Assembly: GCF_007004095.1 (NCBI RefSeq) | Contig: NZ_VHJK01000001.1 | Span: forward strand, 434,001-498,000 | Direction: 5' to 3' | DNA from: Erythrobacter insulae | GTDB taxonomy: Bacteria > Pseudomonadota > Alphaproteobacteria > Sphingomonadales > Sphingomonadaceae | Length of the DNA: 64,000 bases | Shown: piece after piece, positions 51,665 through 55,742 of the stretch | How the letters are laid out: the number at the start of each line of letters is the position of its first letter | Numbering within the stretch: the stretch's first letter is position 1 | The notes under the pieces: generated by a model | Databases searched by the model: none | Told to the model about the DNA's origin: nothing | Seen by the model: only the letters and a program-made list of their open reading frames with translations | Position numbers and translations under genes: made by a program

Positions 51665-52672
51665 CTAACCTGAAGTCACCATACAGCCCTGGCCCTGAGC
51701 CTTAAGCTGCGCACAGGCCGCTTGGGCATCGGCGCGGGTTGCAAACCCTGCGGCTTGCAACCGCGTGACTTTGCCGCCGGGCACCAACACTTTGCGTGTT
51801 CCCGAAAGCGCAGGATTGCGCGACAATTTCGACCAGAGCCGATCGGCATTGCTCGGCACGCCGAATGCACCGAGTTGCACTTTCCATTTGCCGCCAGTGG
51901 CTGCGGGCTGATTGTTCACAGCGCGAACAGGTGGTTCGGGCGGCGCTGCTGCTGCCAAGCGGGGCGCCGGCGCGCGCGGTGTGGGTACAGGTGAAGCCAC
52001 AGAAGGGGCCACCCGCGGCGTGATCGGGCGGCTGGTGTTAAGATCGACAGCCGCCAGCTCGGCAGCGCGGCGATTGCCTGCCTCTGCTTCAATTTCGCGT
52101 GCAAGCGATTGCGCGCCCTGGCGATCTTCGACAGGGATAAACTGGTCCATCTGACCAAGAGCCTTTGACGCCTGCGGCAGGCCTGCCGATTGTGCAAGGC
52201 TCAGCAAGGCATAGGCCCGCACCCAGTCTTTTTCGGCATAGTCGGCGTTGAAATGGGCAAGGCCCAACACGTATTGCGCGCGCGGATCACCGCGCTCCGC
52301 AGCAGCCCGGATCAGCGGCATCGCATCAACCTGCTGGCCTTGTTGGAAAAGCAGCAGGCCGTAATTATCAGCCGCCTTCACATGGCCTTTCTGTGCGGCC
52401 TCGGCATACAATTCTTTGGCGCGCTCCACATCGGCTGGCACGCCGCGGCCCAATCGATAGGCCTGCGCCAAGTTAAACAGCGCATCGGCATCGCCGTTTT
52501 CGGCTGGCCCTCTCCATTCGGATACCGCGCGGCCATATTGACCGGCGCTCCACGCTTCCACACCCGCTTTAACATCGGCAAAGGCCGGTGCAGCCATGGA
52601 CGCCAGCCCAGCCGCCACGACAAGGCCAGCGCGGCGAATAAAACGGGATGGTCGGGTGATGCGGTTTGCCAT
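51665..52672 (-). CDS. Exported Sel1-repeat/SPOR protein
   Basis: 335 residues: signal peptide (about 1-32, MAAPAFADV), four or so Sel1 repeats (about 45-160, ADALFNLAQAYRLGRGVP, VKAADNYGLLLFQQGQ, PRAQYVLGLAHF), a Pro/Ala-rich linker and a C-terminal SPOR domain (about 255-335, WKVQLGAFGVPSNADRLWSKL ... VTRLQAAGFATRADAQAACAQLK). SPOR domains bind denuded peptidoglycan at the division site. Divergent from the ParA operon; shares the 230-base control region. Confidence 0.88.
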   Translation of the reverse strand: MANRITRPSRFIRRAGLVVAAGLASMAAPAFADVKAGVEAWSAGQYGRAVSEWRGPAENGDADALFNLAQAYRLGRGVPADVERAKELYAEAAQKGHVKAADNYGLLLFQQGQQVDAMPLIRAAAERGDPRAQYVLGLAHFNADYAEKDWVRAYALLSLAQSAGLPQASKALGQMDQFIPVEDRQGAQSLAREIEAEAGNRRAAELAAVDLNTSRPITPRVAPSVASPVPTPRAPAPRLAAAAPPEPPVRAVNNQPAATGGKWKVQLGAFGVPSNADRLWSKLSRNPALSGTRKVLVPGGKVTRLQAAGFATRADAQAACAQLKAQGQGCMVTSG

Positions 52673-52812
52673 GTGCTTACGCTCCTTGATTACAGCCGGC
52701 CGCTCGGCGCGGCGCGGCACTTATGTCTATTGGCAGCCGCTATAGTGAATCAAGAGTTAGGATTTCGTTGCCTGCCTTGTGACGCGCGCAATCCGGTTTA
52801 GATCTTCGTCCA

Positions 52813-52827
52813 TTAACCTAAAATTAG
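52813..52827 (+). promoter_or_regulatory. CtrA-box-like site in the ParA/SPOR control region
   Basis: TTAA-N7-TTAG (52813-52816, 52824-52827), 7 of 8 bases of the alphaproteobacterial CtrA consensus TTAA-N7-TTAA. A single such match can arise by chance in an AT-rich gap; not tested. Confidence 0.35.
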
Positions 52828-52846
52828 GGGTAGTCTGCGATCTCAA

Positions 52847-52883
52847 GGTCACTCGGTCGCATTTGAGCGACACCATTGGTCAC
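52847..52883 (+). promoter_or_regulatory. Candidate operator for the ParA/RHH pair
   Basis: Cluster of related elements: GGTCAC (52847-52852), GGTCGC (52855-52860), GCGACACC in reverse (52867-52874) and GGTCAC (52878-52883). GTCGC-ATTTGA-GCGAC is a perfect inverted repeat. It lies just upstream of the ParA start and suits a ribbon-helix-helix repressor. Confidence 0.45.
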
Positions 52884-52902
52884 AATCAGGGGGACCCAGA
52901 CG

Positions 52903-53622
52903 TTGCGTGTACTTGCTTTGGCATCGCAGAAAGGCGGATCAGGGAAAACAACCCTTTCCGGACATCTGGCCGTCCAGGCTCAGCGCGCAGGCGCTGGCCC
53001 GGTGGTACTTATAGACATCGACCCGCAAGGATCGCTGGCCGATTGGTGGAATGAACGCGAGGCGGAATATCCGGCCTTTGCACAGACCACTGTATCCCGG
53101 CTGGCCAATGACCTTGCGGTTCTTCGTCAACAAGGTTTCAAACTGGCTGTCATCGATACGCCGCCTGCGATCACCATGGCTATTCAGTCGGTGATCGGAG
53201 TTGCAGAATTGATCGTAGTGCCGACCCGCCCCAGCCCGCATGATTTGCGCGCGGTCGGTGCCACCGTTGATCTGTGCGAACGCGCTGGCAAACCGCTGGT
53301 CTTCGTCGTCAATGGTGCCACCCCGAAAGCAAAAATCACATCGGAAGCCGCCGTCGCGCTATCGCAGCACGGCACTGTTGCACCGATCACGTTGCACCAT
53401 CGCACGGACTTTGCAGCCTCGATGATCGATGGCCGCACCGTGATGGAAGTGGAGCCAGAAGGCCGAAGCGCTGCCGAAATGACTGCATTGTGGAAGTATA
53501 TTTCGGACCGCCTCGAAAAGAATTTCCGCCGGACTGTGTTTGCCGCGCCTCCGGGTGGCGGTCAGCCGCAGGCCAACACCGCGCGTGCAGGTGGTAGCTT
53601 CGGCCGCCGGGTTGCTCAGTAA
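52903..53622 (+). CDS. ParA-family ATPase
   Basis: 239-residue deviant Walker ATPase: ALASQKGGSGKTTLSGHLAVQ (Walker A with signature Lys), LIDIDPQGSLADW (A'), and LAVIDTPPA (B). ParA proteins move or position cargo by patterning on the nucleoid. It is chromosomal, 15 bases from a gene with a ribbon-helix-helix C-terminus, not a ParB. The start is TTG at 52903 with AGGGGGA upstream; a TTG at 52876 is an alternative that would overlap the operator-like repeats. No ParB or parS is nearby. Confidence 0.85.
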   Translation: MRVLALASQKGGSGKTTLSGHLAVQAQRAGAGPVVLIDIDPQGSLADWWNEREAEYPAFAQTTVSRLANDLAVLRQQGFKLAVIDTPPAITMAIQSVIGVAELIVVPTRPSPHDLRAVGATVDLCERAGKPLVFVVNGATPKAKITSEAAVALSQHGTVAPITLHHRTDFAASMIDGRTVMEVEPEGRSAAEMTALWKYISDRLEKNFRRTVFAAPPGGGQPQANTARAGGSFGRRVAQ

Positions 53623-53637
53623 AAGGCTGATTGGACC

Positions 53638-54225
53638 ATGTCAGAAGCTAGCTTTGCCTCTTTGAATCCGGCTCTGCTCGCTCGCAAGGGCGGGGCGAAG
53701 CCTGCCATGCGCCCGCAGCTCGCACCGCTCCCCAACGATCCGGCGGAGATGGCAGCGATGGCGGACGAACAGCTCGAAGATCTGGGCTGGAACGATATGG
53801 GCGGTGAAAACGCCGAGACGCCGCGGAACACTGCGACAAACCATGGCCCAGACCGCGGTGCTGAGGTGGTTTCCATCACTGCCAGCGCGGCGAATGAGGA
53901 CATCATCGAGGCCCCCAGCCCGATTGTCTGCCGCCAGCAAAAAGACCTTTCCGAACGGGTACTCGCCCAGGCGGCGATGCCAACCAGTGAAAAGATTGCC
54001 GAGCAGACCGCAAACCGGGCAGCTCGCACGATCAAGAAAGCCAAAACGTCTGGCAGACGCGCAGCCTTTACGCTGCGCCTTGATCCGGAACGTCACCTCA
54101 AGCTGCGGCTTGCATCGACGATCAAGGGCATCAGTGCGCAAGCGCTCGTAACCGAAGCGCTCGACGCCATGCTTACCGAATTTCAAGAACTAGATGCGCT
54201 CGCCGAGCGCATGAAACGCAATTGA
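53638..54225 (+). CDS. Ribbon-helix-helix DNA-binding protein, partner of ParA
   Basis: 195 residues. About 130 residues of low-complexity, Ala/Pro/Asp-rich sequence (MAAMADEQLEDLGWNDMGG) precede a C-terminal ribbon-helix-helix fold (about 145-187): AAFTLRLDPERHLKLRLAS then KGISAQALVTEALDAML, which has the strand-helix-helix pattern and the Arg-x-Asp strand of the CopG/ParG type. Such proteins are often the second half of ParA partition pairs and repress their own operon. It is 15 bases after parA and ends close to the SPOR gene. Confidence 0.72.
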   Translation: MSEASFASLNPALLARKGGAKPAMRPQLAPLPNDPAEMAAMADEQLEDLGWNDMGGENAETPRNTATNHGPDRGAEVVSITASAANEDIIEAPSPIVCRQQKDLSERVLAQAAMPTSEKIAEQTANRAARTIKKAKTSGRRAAFTLRLDPERHLKLRLASTIKGISAQALVTEALDAMLTEFQELDALAERMKRN

Positions 54226-54251
54226 GCGATACGGCACAGGGAAACAGAATC

Positions 54252-55685
54252 ATGGCCAACACAACTCAAAGCATCACCAAGAGCCGCGTGAACGCGCCAA
54301 AATTGGCGCTTGTCGTGACAACAGCGCTTGCAAGCGTTGCGCTTTCCGGTTGCACCACGTCTTCTGCGCCGCCGGCTGCGTCGTCTTTCACCAAAGCGCA
54401 AGTCGCGCTTGAAAAAGGTCAGGTCGATAAAGCGATCGGCTTTGCCGAGGAGGCTGTTTATGCCGAACCGCGCAATTCCGGTTTCCGCGCCATGCTGGGC
54501 GCTGCATATCTTGAAGCAGGCCGTTTCCAATCGGCAGCAACCAGTTTTGAAGATGCGATGGAACTGGGCGACGAAGATTCCCGCACCGTGCTAAGCTATG
54601 CGCTGGCAAAGGTCGCTATGGGTGACAACAATGCCGCCCTGCAAAAACTTGGCGAGTGGGAAAGCGCAATCAATCCCGCCGATTACGGTCTGGCGATCGC
54701 GCTCGCTGGAAAGCCTGAGCGCGGCGTCCATGTGCTTACCAACACACTGCGCGGCGGTCAGAACACTGCAAAAGTGCGTCAGAACCTTGCTTACACATAT
54801 GCGCTCGCCGGAAACTGGCGCGCTGCACGCGTGATGGCCGCCGAAGATGTACCCGCCGGTCAGGTCGATAGCCGTTTGTCCGATTGGGCGTCCAAGTCGA
54901 AGCCTGAGGACTTTCAAGTTCGCGTCGCATCCTTGTTGAATGTGTCACCGCGGGCCGATGGCGGCCAACCACAACGCCTTGCGCTGGGCAATTTCCCAAG
55001 CCAGCAAATGATGGTCGCAGAAGCAGCCGCGCAGGCACCTGTTAAAACGGCAATGGCAAAACCAGCCGTTGCCACCGTTCCAAACTCGGCAGCGACACTG
55101 TCCGAAGGACCAAAACGGGTCCGCAAAGCCGACCCTGCTGTCGCCCAAATTCTGGCGGCCACCCAAAGCAAGCCTGTATCGCCTACAGCCGGTAAAACGG
55201 TCACCGATACCAAGCCGGCAGCCCGCGTCGCAGCCAAGCCAGCGCCCAAATCCGGCCCGCGCTTTGTATCTAACACGATGGTACAAAAGGTCCCCGCTGC
55301 GTCAGCAAAGCCGGCCCCAGTTCCGGCGCCAACACGCGTCGCACAGAAAACATCTCAGCGCCGCATGGCCGCTGCGTCAGGCATGAACAGCACGCATCTG
55401 GTTCAGCTAGGCAGTTTCAACACCCGCTCTGTGGCTGAGGCGAAGTGGGATGATATGCAGCGCAAACATCCTGAGCTGAAGGGTCATGATGTCGTGATCA
55501 CGGAAGCCAAGGTAAACGGCAAAACATATTTCCGCGTAGCCGCAGCCGGTTTCACTTCCAAAAGCGCGCGCACCATGTGCGGCTCTGTCAAATCGAGCGG
55601 CCTGGGCTGTTTCGCCTATGCGGCATCCAGCCCGCCAAAAGGCGCAGTGGATCGCGGCGTACGCATCGCTGCCCGCACCCGGTAA
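54252..55685 (+). CDS. SPOR-domain TPR lipoprotein
   Basis: 477 residues: signal peptide with lipobox LSGCTTS (lipidated Cys about residue 33), TPR-like repeats (about 45-210, ALEKGQVDKAIGFAEEAVYAEP, AMLGAAYLEAGRFQSAATSFEDAM), a long Ala/Pro/Lys-rich stalk (about 240-390) and a SPOR domain (about 395-477, THLVQLGSFNTRSVAEAKWDDMQR). It could tether an envelope complex at the septum. ATG 54252 has AGGGAAA upstream; a TTG at 54222 is an alternative. Together with the first SPOR protein it flanks the ParA/RHH pair. Confidence 0.87.
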   Translation: MANTTQSITKSRVNAPKLALVVTTALASVALSGCTTSSAPPAASSFTKAQVALEKGQVDKAIGFAEEAVYAEPRNSGFRAMLGAAYLEAGRFQSAATSFEDAMELGDEDSRTVLSYALAKVAMGDNNAALQKLGEWESAINPADYGLAIALAGKPERGVHVLTNTLRGGQNTAKVRQNLAYTYALAGNWRAARVMAAEDVPAGQVDSRLSDWASKSKPEDFQVRVASLLNVSPRADGGQPQRLALGNFPSQQMMVAEAAAQAPVKTAMAKPAVATVPNSAATLSEGPKRVRKADPAVAQILAATQSKPVSPTAGKTVTDTKPAARVAAKPAPKSGPRFVSNTMVQKVPAASAKPAPVPAPTRVAQKTSQRRMAAASGMNSTHLVQLGSFNTRSVAEAKWDDMQRKHPELKGHDVVITEAKVNGKTYFRVAAAGFTSKSARTMCGSVKSSGLGCFAYAASSPPKGAVDRGVRIAARTR

Positions 55686-55709
55686 ACACACCCAAATTCT
55701 TAGCAAGAC

Positions 55710-55742
55710 TGCCCCCGAAGCGAGAGTTTCGGGGGCATTTTT
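55710..55742 (+). terminator. Terminator of the ParA-RHH-SPOR operon
   Basis: Stem TGCCCCCGAA / TTTCGGGGGCA with loop GCGAGAG, followed by TTTTTG on the plus strand. The pseudo-dihydroorotase gene converges from the right. Confidence 0.88.

What the first reader, a model, noticed from the sequence alone, without database searches (positions are those of the whole stretch)
52673..55742. ParA and ribbon-helix-helix pair embedded between two SPOR proteins
Seen: ParA (52903-53622) is followed 15 bases later by a protein with a C-terminal ribbon-helix-helix, then a SPOR lipoprotein, while a Sel1/SPOR protein reads away from the same control region. There is no ParB or parS nearby. Known: ParA ATPases position cargo (Par, MinD, McdA), and SPOR domains bind septal peptidoglycan. 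Inference: this may be a positioning system for an envelope complex, with the RHH protein as operator-binding adaptor. The control region holds GGTCrC repeats, a perfect 5-bp inverted repeat and a CtrA-like site, so it may be cell-cycle controlled.
Basis: partly seen in the sequence, partly recalled or inferred. Interest (0 to 1): 0.72.

Follow-up and report, generated by a model that had tools for sequence, protein, structure and literature searches.

The report
Partition motor recruited beside septum proteins
A plasmid-type DNA-partition motor and its DNA-binding partner have become a long-kept chromosomal gene pair between two cell-wall-binding proteins, and in some distant relatives the partner's DNA-binding end is replaced by a membrane anchor with such a cell-wall-binding domain, so one motor family may serve two kinds of cargo.

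Summary
In detail: ParA (52903-53622), an RHH protein (53638-54225) and a TPR-SPOR lipoprotein (54252-55685) run together, with a Sel1-SPOR gene (51665-52672) reading away. It is not local. ParA-RHH-TPR/SPOR order holds in 80 of 80 loci found with the RHH protein and 31 of 31 ParA loci, one per genus of the family; a SPOR frame lies within 4 kb of ParA in 35 of 36 loci of other families of the order.

The pair resembles plasmid ParF/ParG (RHH hit not significant) and has plasmid relatives. The partner's N-terminal tail (ASLxxxLLARKGxAxP) is the shared part: in 318 class genomes 41 of 42 tail matches lie behind this ParA. In six genomes that tail is joined not to RHH but to a hydrophobic segment plus SPOR domain. 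That supports a ParA-SPOR link and an adaptor with exchangeable heads.

In the window's lineage RHH should be cytoplasmic and the SPOR proteins exported, so envelope positioning is unproven. A conserved TTAA-N7-TTAG element is CtrA-like; the GGTCrC repeats are not conserved. New variant of a known kind.

The parts
51665..52672 (-). Sel1-repeat + C-terminal SPOR protein with signal peptide (read by eye), divergent from parA
   Evidence: Pfam SPOR 65.2 bits, Sel1 31 bits; divergent upstream in 62 of 80 close relatives and 29 of 31 one-per-genus family loci
52813..52827 (+). TTAA-N7-TTAG element (TTAACCTAAAATTAG), CtrA-like, 90 bases before parA
   Evidence: 75 of 79 close relatives, 24 of 31 family genera, 4 of 37 loci of other families in the order, 2 of 40 in the class; 0.36 of 79 in shuffles. 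Found in three of four loci that lost parA and rhh but kept both SPOR genes. Genome coordinate C1:486813
52903..53622 (+). ParA ATPase, 239 aa, Walker-only type, signature lysine K10, conserved C-terminal tail
   Evidence: NCBIfam NF041546 165 bits, cut-off 180; nearest solved structures by profile 5u1g ParA and TP228 ParF
53638..54225 (+). ParG-like partner: N-terminal tail motif, LEDLGWNDMG motif, variable linker, C-terminal ribbon-helix-helix
   Evidence: alignments, tail model A4, AlphaFold model, Foldseek, single PDB profile hit ParG 1p94 at E 0.72, not significant
53647..53712 (+). 22-residue tail (residues 4-25), presumed ParA-docking/ATPase-activating segment
   Evidence: in the own genome E 5e-9, next match 0.27; 41 of 42 class matches within 1 kb behind ParA
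54252..55685 (+). TPR + SPOR lipoprotein (lipobox LSGC by eye, C34 nearly invariant)
   Evidence: Pfam; alignment A3; follows RHH in 80 of 80 close relatives

Best explanation
It is a chromosomally fixed type-Ib-like partition pair (a ParF/ParG-like motor and adaptor) built into a SPOR gene cluster. Shown by sequence: a Walker-only ParA; a partner with a conserved basic N-terminal tail and an RHH head; co-directional with a TPR-SPOR lipoprotein behind a conserved TTAA-N7-TTAG element; lost as a pair; and the same tail joined to a hydrophobic segment plus SPOR in some other Alphaproteobacteria. Inferred: nucleoid-bound ParA-ATP is docked and switched by the tail (its R16 acting like the ParG arginine finger), and the other end decides the cargo. 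In Sphingomonadales the head is a DNA-binding RHH dimer, which holds a DNA site (perhaps its own promoter region). In the TM-SPOR version the head is an inner-membrane protein that grips denuded septal peptidoglycan. The likely job of both is to couple nucleoid position to the septal or polar envelope, timed by a CtrA-type promoter.
For: Gene order in 80 of 80 and 31 of 31 loci; SPOR within 4 kb in 35 of 36 order loci, but in only 6 of 40 class loci, all six being the partner itself. Cluster reshuffled yet kept in six f5 loci and inverted against its flanks in four Erythrobacteraceae. Of 133 family genomes 122 have both genes, 10 have neither orthologue and 1 has ParA alone. Tail-ParA adjacency 41 of 42. 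Six TM-SPOR partners above the Pfam cut-off with a hydrophobic segment. Plasmid relatives with a version of the tail, by eye, in 6 of 6 read. Precedent: TP228 ParB (ParG) binds ParA by a disordered N-terminal segment with Arg19, followed by RHH (PMC5393062 passages); partners use the N-terminus for the ATPase and the rest for cargo (PMC10241942 passages).
Against: No binding, ATPase or localisation data. RHH and SPOR proteins should sit on opposite sides of the inner membrane in this lineage and I found no linking membrane protein. No conserved repeat array like a plasmid centromere was seen. The promoter element also stands upstream of TPR-SPOR genes that have lost ParA/RHH, so it is not an RHH operator. 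The pair is missing from 10 family genomes that are 99-100% complete, so it is dispensable there. Similarity of the RHH profile to ParG is not significant (E 0.72), and no RHH fold hit is. Outside the order 34 of 40 loci show no SPOR frame within 4 kb, so the SPOR link is not general for this ParA family.
Confidence: 0.55

Rival explanations
1. Regulatory reading: the RHH protein, with ParA as ATP-dependent co-regulator (as some plasmid Par proteins repress their own operon), mainly controls transcription of the divergent SPOR genes; no cargo is moved.
For: RHH beta-strand is nearly invariant; genes share one intergenic region; both SPOR proteins should be on the far side of the membrane; no array of the promoter element elsewhere.
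Against: No conserved operator found beyond the CtrA-like element, which survives loss of RHH in three of four loci; the TM-SPOR partners lack the DNA-binding head; a near-invariant ParA (92% mean column identity) and tail are more than a repressor needs.
Confidence: 0.22
2. A true chromosomal DNA segregation or anchoring system: RHH binds one or more unknown centromere sites and ParA segregates or positions that locus; the SPOR neighbours are only operon partners.
For: Plasmid homologues next to replication genes; ParA nearest to ParF; most class loci have no SPOR frame nearby (34 of 40).
Against: A ParB_N gene with a ParA-like frame just before it lies elsewhere; no repeat array seen; the TM-SPOR head swap and order-wide SPOR linkage would be unexplained.
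Confidence: 0.15
3. Selfish or passive remnant of a plasmid partition module, carried along by operon inertia.
For: Missing in several genera; plasmid ancestry plausible.
Against: ParA is 86-97% identical to the window's in 32 aligned relatives; the block survives inversion and rearrangement; 41 of 42 tail matches stay with ParA.
Confidence: 0.05

Closest known systems
TP228 ParF/ParG (type Ib plasmid partition)
   Same: Walker-only ParA; downstream small partner with disordered N-terminal tail and C-terminal RHH (PMC5393062, passages seen)
   Different: Chromosomal, flanked by SPOR genes; partner about 2-4 times longer, with a LEDLGWNDMG motif; no centromere repeats found; some relatives have TM+SPOR in place of RHH. 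That the tail motif differs from ParG's is recalled, not aligned here
NCBIfam NF041546 ParA family partition ATPase
   Same: Best model for the window ParA, 165 bits over residues 3-198
   Different: 15 bits below its cut-off; one plasmid relative (170) and one TM-SPOR-linked ParA (156) are below it too
HubP/FimV polar landmark proteins
   Same: Membrane protein with a periplasmic LysM-like domain (PMC12918733, abstract in a search listing); link to ParA-type ATPases recalled
   Different: LysM not SPOR; extensive acidic cytoplasmic part, not a 20-residue ParA tail; sequences not compared here
McdA/McdB and PpfA/TlpT cargo-positioning ATPases
   Same: ParA-type ATPase with adaptor whose N-terminus meets the ATPase (PMC10241942, passages seen)
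   Different: Cargo is carboxysomes or chemoreceptors; RHH or SPOR heads not known to me there
MipZ
   Same: Alphaproteobacterial ParA-like division regulator; P-loop similarity
   Different: Only residues 3-54 match; a separate MipZ lies beside one TM-SPOR locus (L203)

Membership tests
Type Ib (ParF/ParG-like) partition system | ParA without N-terminal HTH, deviant Walker A with signature lysine | tested here: met
   239 aa, AAA_31 from residue 1, QKGGSGKTT with invariant K10 and K15
Type Ib (ParF/ParG-like) partition system | Downstream partner with N-terminal tail and C-terminal RHH | tested here: met
   the RHH assignment rests on weak domain and fold hits that agree with the sequence pattern
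Type Ib (ParF/ParG-like) partition system | Centromere of repeats near the operon | tested here: inconclusive
   GGTCrC not among the enriched words; no array of the promoter element in the genome; degenerate repeats not excluded
Type Ib (ParF/ParG-like) partition system | Stabilises the replicon; partner stimulates ATPase | not testable with these tools
   Needs bench work
Type Ib (ParF/ParG-like) partition system | Located on a plasmid | tested here: not met
   Contig C1, which also holds the only ParB_N gene; flanked by der, pyrB and pyrC genes (labels by eye) here and in relatives
MipZ | Full-length match to PF09140 | tested here: not met
   33.6 bits, residues 3-54 only
BcsQ (cellulose) | NCBIfam cut-off TIGR03371 | tested here: not met
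   56.8 against 157.85 bits
Canonical chromosomal ParABS | ParB_N partner next to ParA | tested here: not met
   Only ParB_N match in the genome is about 670 kb away

The most novel reading that the evidence does not exclude
A ParA motor family with exchangeable cargo heads: the same activating tail is joined to a DNA-binding RHH (plasmids, Sphingomonadales and others) or to a transmembrane SPOR protein that would grip septal peptidoglycan across the inner membrane. The latter would be a nucleoid-bound ParA that positions, or is positioned by, the septal cell wall, a direct mechanical link between nucleoid and septum. In Sphingomonadales the two functions would be split between RHH and neighbouring SPOR proteins.
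Probability: 0.4. Interest if true: 0.82.

Novelty: new variant of a known kind. Interest (0 to 1): 0.64.

Why it matters
How ParA-type motors acquire new cargo, and how alphaproteobacteria tie the nucleoid to the division septum, are open questions. A family in which one short tail is fused to either a DNA-binding or a septum-binding head makes both testable with a handful of constructs, and gives a set of alphaproteobacterial ParA genes of unknown cargo a recognisable partner.

Tried and rejected
GGTCrC repeats as centromere: not among the 14 most enriched 6-, 7- or 8-base words of 63 intergenic regions. TTAA-N7-TTAG as RHH operator or dispersed parS: the pattern TTAACN6TTAG occurs 3 times in the genome, its reversed control 36 times, and the element stays in three of four loci that lost RHH (L139, L143, L144; not L217), so rejected. 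My first pattern for it was one base too short. Leader inverted repeat as RNA hairpin or operator: a perfect repeat in some of the 40 relatives printed, wobble-type changes in some, absent in others; left open. Second tail-bearing partner in the genome: none below E 0.27. TM-SPOR partner on plasmids: 17 records, none over 80% of the query; the 15 rows shown cover only the SPOR domain. Fold search of the RHH model: 11 hits, none under E 1.9; the first is a ribosomal chain, the others are, as I recall them, RHH proteins. Profile comparison of the tail with the L216 partner: 11% probability. Literature: no paper linking a ParA to a SPOR protein appeared in the listings of searches (open-licence papers only; top rows only). 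MipZ, BcsQ, canonical ParABS: rejected (membership test).

Selection and rows left out: the 80 loci are the best 80 of 219 and were found by the RHH protein; the 31 one-per-genus loci were chosen because they have ParA. In 18 of the 80 the divergent Sel1-SPOR was not found; some of these are cut by contig ends, others (such as L007, L008) are not. L222 (cut) is not in the 36 order loci. Class loci fetched were 40 of the 58 ParA places outside the window's family (63 places in all). In these 40 the RHH profile matched 24, one of them (L178) by the tail alone; six have SPOR; the rest were judged by eye, and in L187 (no tail found), L190 (contig end) and L194 no clear partner was called. L199 (stop inside ParA) and rows under 150 residues were left out of the tree. 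Plasmid partners were read in 6 of 585 records. The tail regex failed in 22 of 213 loci: five are paralogues, one has lost RHH (L136), the others have variant tails or start calls that I did not settle. Of the ten family genomes without the pair nine loci were read; G200 was not. TPR-SPOR was sought only in the fetched stretches of L137, L138, L140, L141 and L142, not in the rest of those genomes. The names of the G-handle genomes are unknown to me.
Full report
Observation. ParA is a Walker-only ATPase (AAA_31/CbiA; NCBIfam NF041546 at 165 bits against a cut-off of 180). The RHH protein is complete: the 37 aligned sequences share an N-terminal block, the motif LEDLGWNDMG, a variable linker and a C-terminal RHH. 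The AlphaFold model (mean pLDDT 66) is confident mainly in the C-terminal helices and one middle helix; Foldseek gives 11 weak hits, among them CopG, Arc and NikA. By eye the TPR-SPOR protein has a lipobox and the Sel1-SPOR protein a signal peptide, so both should be outside the inner membrane.

Synteny. A scan with the RHH protein gave 80 loci (the best 80 of 219 relatives). All 80 have ParA-RHH-TPR/SPOR in that order, 62 also the divergent Sel1-SPOR; in four (L059, L065, L075, L081) the block, with the neighbouring DUF418 gene (label by eye), is inverted against its flanks. In 31 loci, one per genus of the window's family and chosen for having ParA, all have RHH and TPR-SPOR and 29 have Sel1-SPOR. 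In other families of the order 20 of the 20 loci L145-L164 have TPR-SPOR and 15 Sel1-SPOR; in six f5 loci (L208, L210, L211, L213, L214, L215) Sel1-SPOR lies between the partner gene and TPR-SPOR, on the other strand, but still in the cluster. A SPOR frame lies within 4 kb of ParA in 78 of 80, 31 of 31 and 35 of 36 loci of these three sets, against 6 of 40 in the class set.

Co-occurrence and natural deletions. Of 216 genomes of the order, 163 have the RHH protein (E <= 1e-3) and 188 a ParA (E <= 1e-20). By my count of those lists, in the window's family (133 of the 216) 122 have both, 10 have neither orthologue (three of these, G120, G182 and G200, keep only a remote ParA), and one (G124) has ParA without RHH; that ParA sits on a long branch (1.26). 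Outside the family ParA is found more often than the RHH profile (63 against 41 genomes), since the partner diverges fast. In four ParA-less loci the two SPOR genes lie next to each other on opposite strands with ParA and RHH gone (L139, L143, L144, L217). In five others (L137, L138, L140, L141, L142) no TPR-SPOR is in the stretch either and Sel1-SPOR lies next to pyrC. So ParA and RHH leave together.

The tail and the head swap. Across the class, 52 of 318 genomes have ParA at E <= 1e-40 (63 places). I fetched 40 of the 58 places outside the family and read the gene behind ParA. Of the 40, 24 match the RHH profile somewhere, nearly always with a version of ASLTxxLLARKGEAxP at the start. In six (L175, L189, L195, L196, L198, L203; families f16, f93, f103, f112) the same tail is followed by one hydrophobic segment (mean hydropathy 2.1-2.7 over 19 residues; next highest among the other tail-bearing partners 1.51) and a C-terminal SPOR domain above the Pfam cut-off. 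L166 carries the tail with no recognised domain and L178 with a weak HTH match. A 22-residue model of the tail finds 42 places in the 318 genomes, 41 of them within 1 kb behind ParA on the same strand; the exception is a weak match in G501 (E 4.5e-4). The tail model was built from such partners, so it finds them by design; the point is that it finds almost nothing else. In the window's own genome it finds only the RHH protein. In the ParA tree (98 rows) the order's SPOR-flanked ParAs outside f5 form one supported group (97/95) and f5 lies apart; the six TM-SPOR ParAs fall in two places (four rows 100/97, two rows 88/85) inside a group that also holds rows with other partners, mostly RHH. One origin is not ruled out. 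The simplest reading is that the head was exchanged once or twice while the tail was kept.

Origin. Plasmid records with a similar ParA number 585 (E <= 1e-20). In the six read, the frame behind ParA is short, begins by eye with a version of the tail and ends in a segment that reads like RHH (two of the six frames are not annotated; no NCBIfam match for the four given); in three a replication gene follows one or two genes on. Among solved structures the ParA profile is nearest to 5u1g ParA and TP228 ParF, and the RHH profile has a single, non-significant hit, ParG. For TP228 the tail-plus-RHH partner and the tail's place at the ParA dimer interface are described in PMC5393062 (passages). That partners meet the ATPase by the N-terminus and cargo by the rest is stated in PMC10241942 (passages).

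Control region. TTAA-N7-TTAG lies 87-107 bases before parA in 75 of 79 close relatives and 66-104 bases before it in 24 of 31 family genera, against 0.36 of 79 by shuffling. That this is a CtrA-type site rests on the recalled consensus TTAA-N7-TTAA; Sphingomonadales keep the CckA-ChpT-CtrA phosphorelay (PMC2877005, passages), and CtrA is not needed for growth in Sphingomonas melonis (PMC8116508, passages). The element also stands upstream of TPR-SPOR in L139, L143 and L144, where ParA and RHH are gone, but not in L217. So it looks like a promoter feature of the operon, not a site for RHH. It is not kept outside the family (4 of 37, 2 of 40). GGTCrC repeats are not conserved.

Mechanism. Best reading: a ParF/ParG-like motor and adaptor, taken into the chromosome early in the order, with the tail as ParA switch and an exchangeable head. 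In Sphingomonadales the head is DNA-binding and the SPOR proteins are separate exported neighbours; in some other lineages tail, membrane anchor and SPOR domain are one protein. One TM-SPOR pair lies beside mipZ (L203) and three f16 pairs beside a class III aminotransferase gene. Shown: anatomy, linkage, co-loss, tail specificity, head swap. Inferred: ATPase activation, DNA target, septal location, cell-cycle timing, and any physical link between RHH and the SPOR neighbours, for which a membrane go-between would be needed. The short LEDLGWNDMG motif, which my regex finds only in the window's family (LEDLGWNDM in 69 of 80 close relatives; a variant in 20 of 31 genera, a lower bound; 0 of 36 and 0 of 38 elsewhere), is a candidate docking site for it.

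Verdict. Real, widely kept and functional-looking; a new variant of a known kind.

Noticed in passing
Partners in loci L145-L224 (other families of the order and class): More than half of the partners outside the window's family have a C-x-C motif in the last 35 residues (23 of 36 order loci, 17 of 32 class loci; 0 of 80 close relatives, 1 of 31 family genera). Function unknown; possible metal or membrane contact.
   Followed up: partly
L203:3932-5920: A TM-SPOR/ParA pair ends against a mipZ gene (PF09140, 275 bits), suggesting a division context.
   Followed up: no
L195, L196, L198: In three f16 genomes the ParA/TM-SPOR pair neighbours a class III aminotransferase and, in L195 and L196, a HAD hydrolase.
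   Followed up: no
L166:5425-5958 and L178:5354-5863: Two further head types on the same tail: no recognised domain (L166) and a weak HTH_23 match below cut-off (L178).
   Followed up: partly
window 53773-53802 (residues 46-55 of the RHH protein): LEDLGWNDMG, a near-invariant acidic-aromatic short motif found by regex only in the window's family, looks like a binding motif for an unknown partner.
   Followed up: partly
G000:C2:98354-98980: A remote ParA (36% identity) on contig C2 (about 300 kb), with no tail-bearing partner recognised behind it.
   Followed up: partly
window 52856-52871: Leader between promoter element and ribosome site holds a 5-bp inverted repeat (GTCGC/GCGAC here, GCCGC/GCGGC in some relatives, a wobble-type change in others, absent in more); not universal.
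   Followed up: partly
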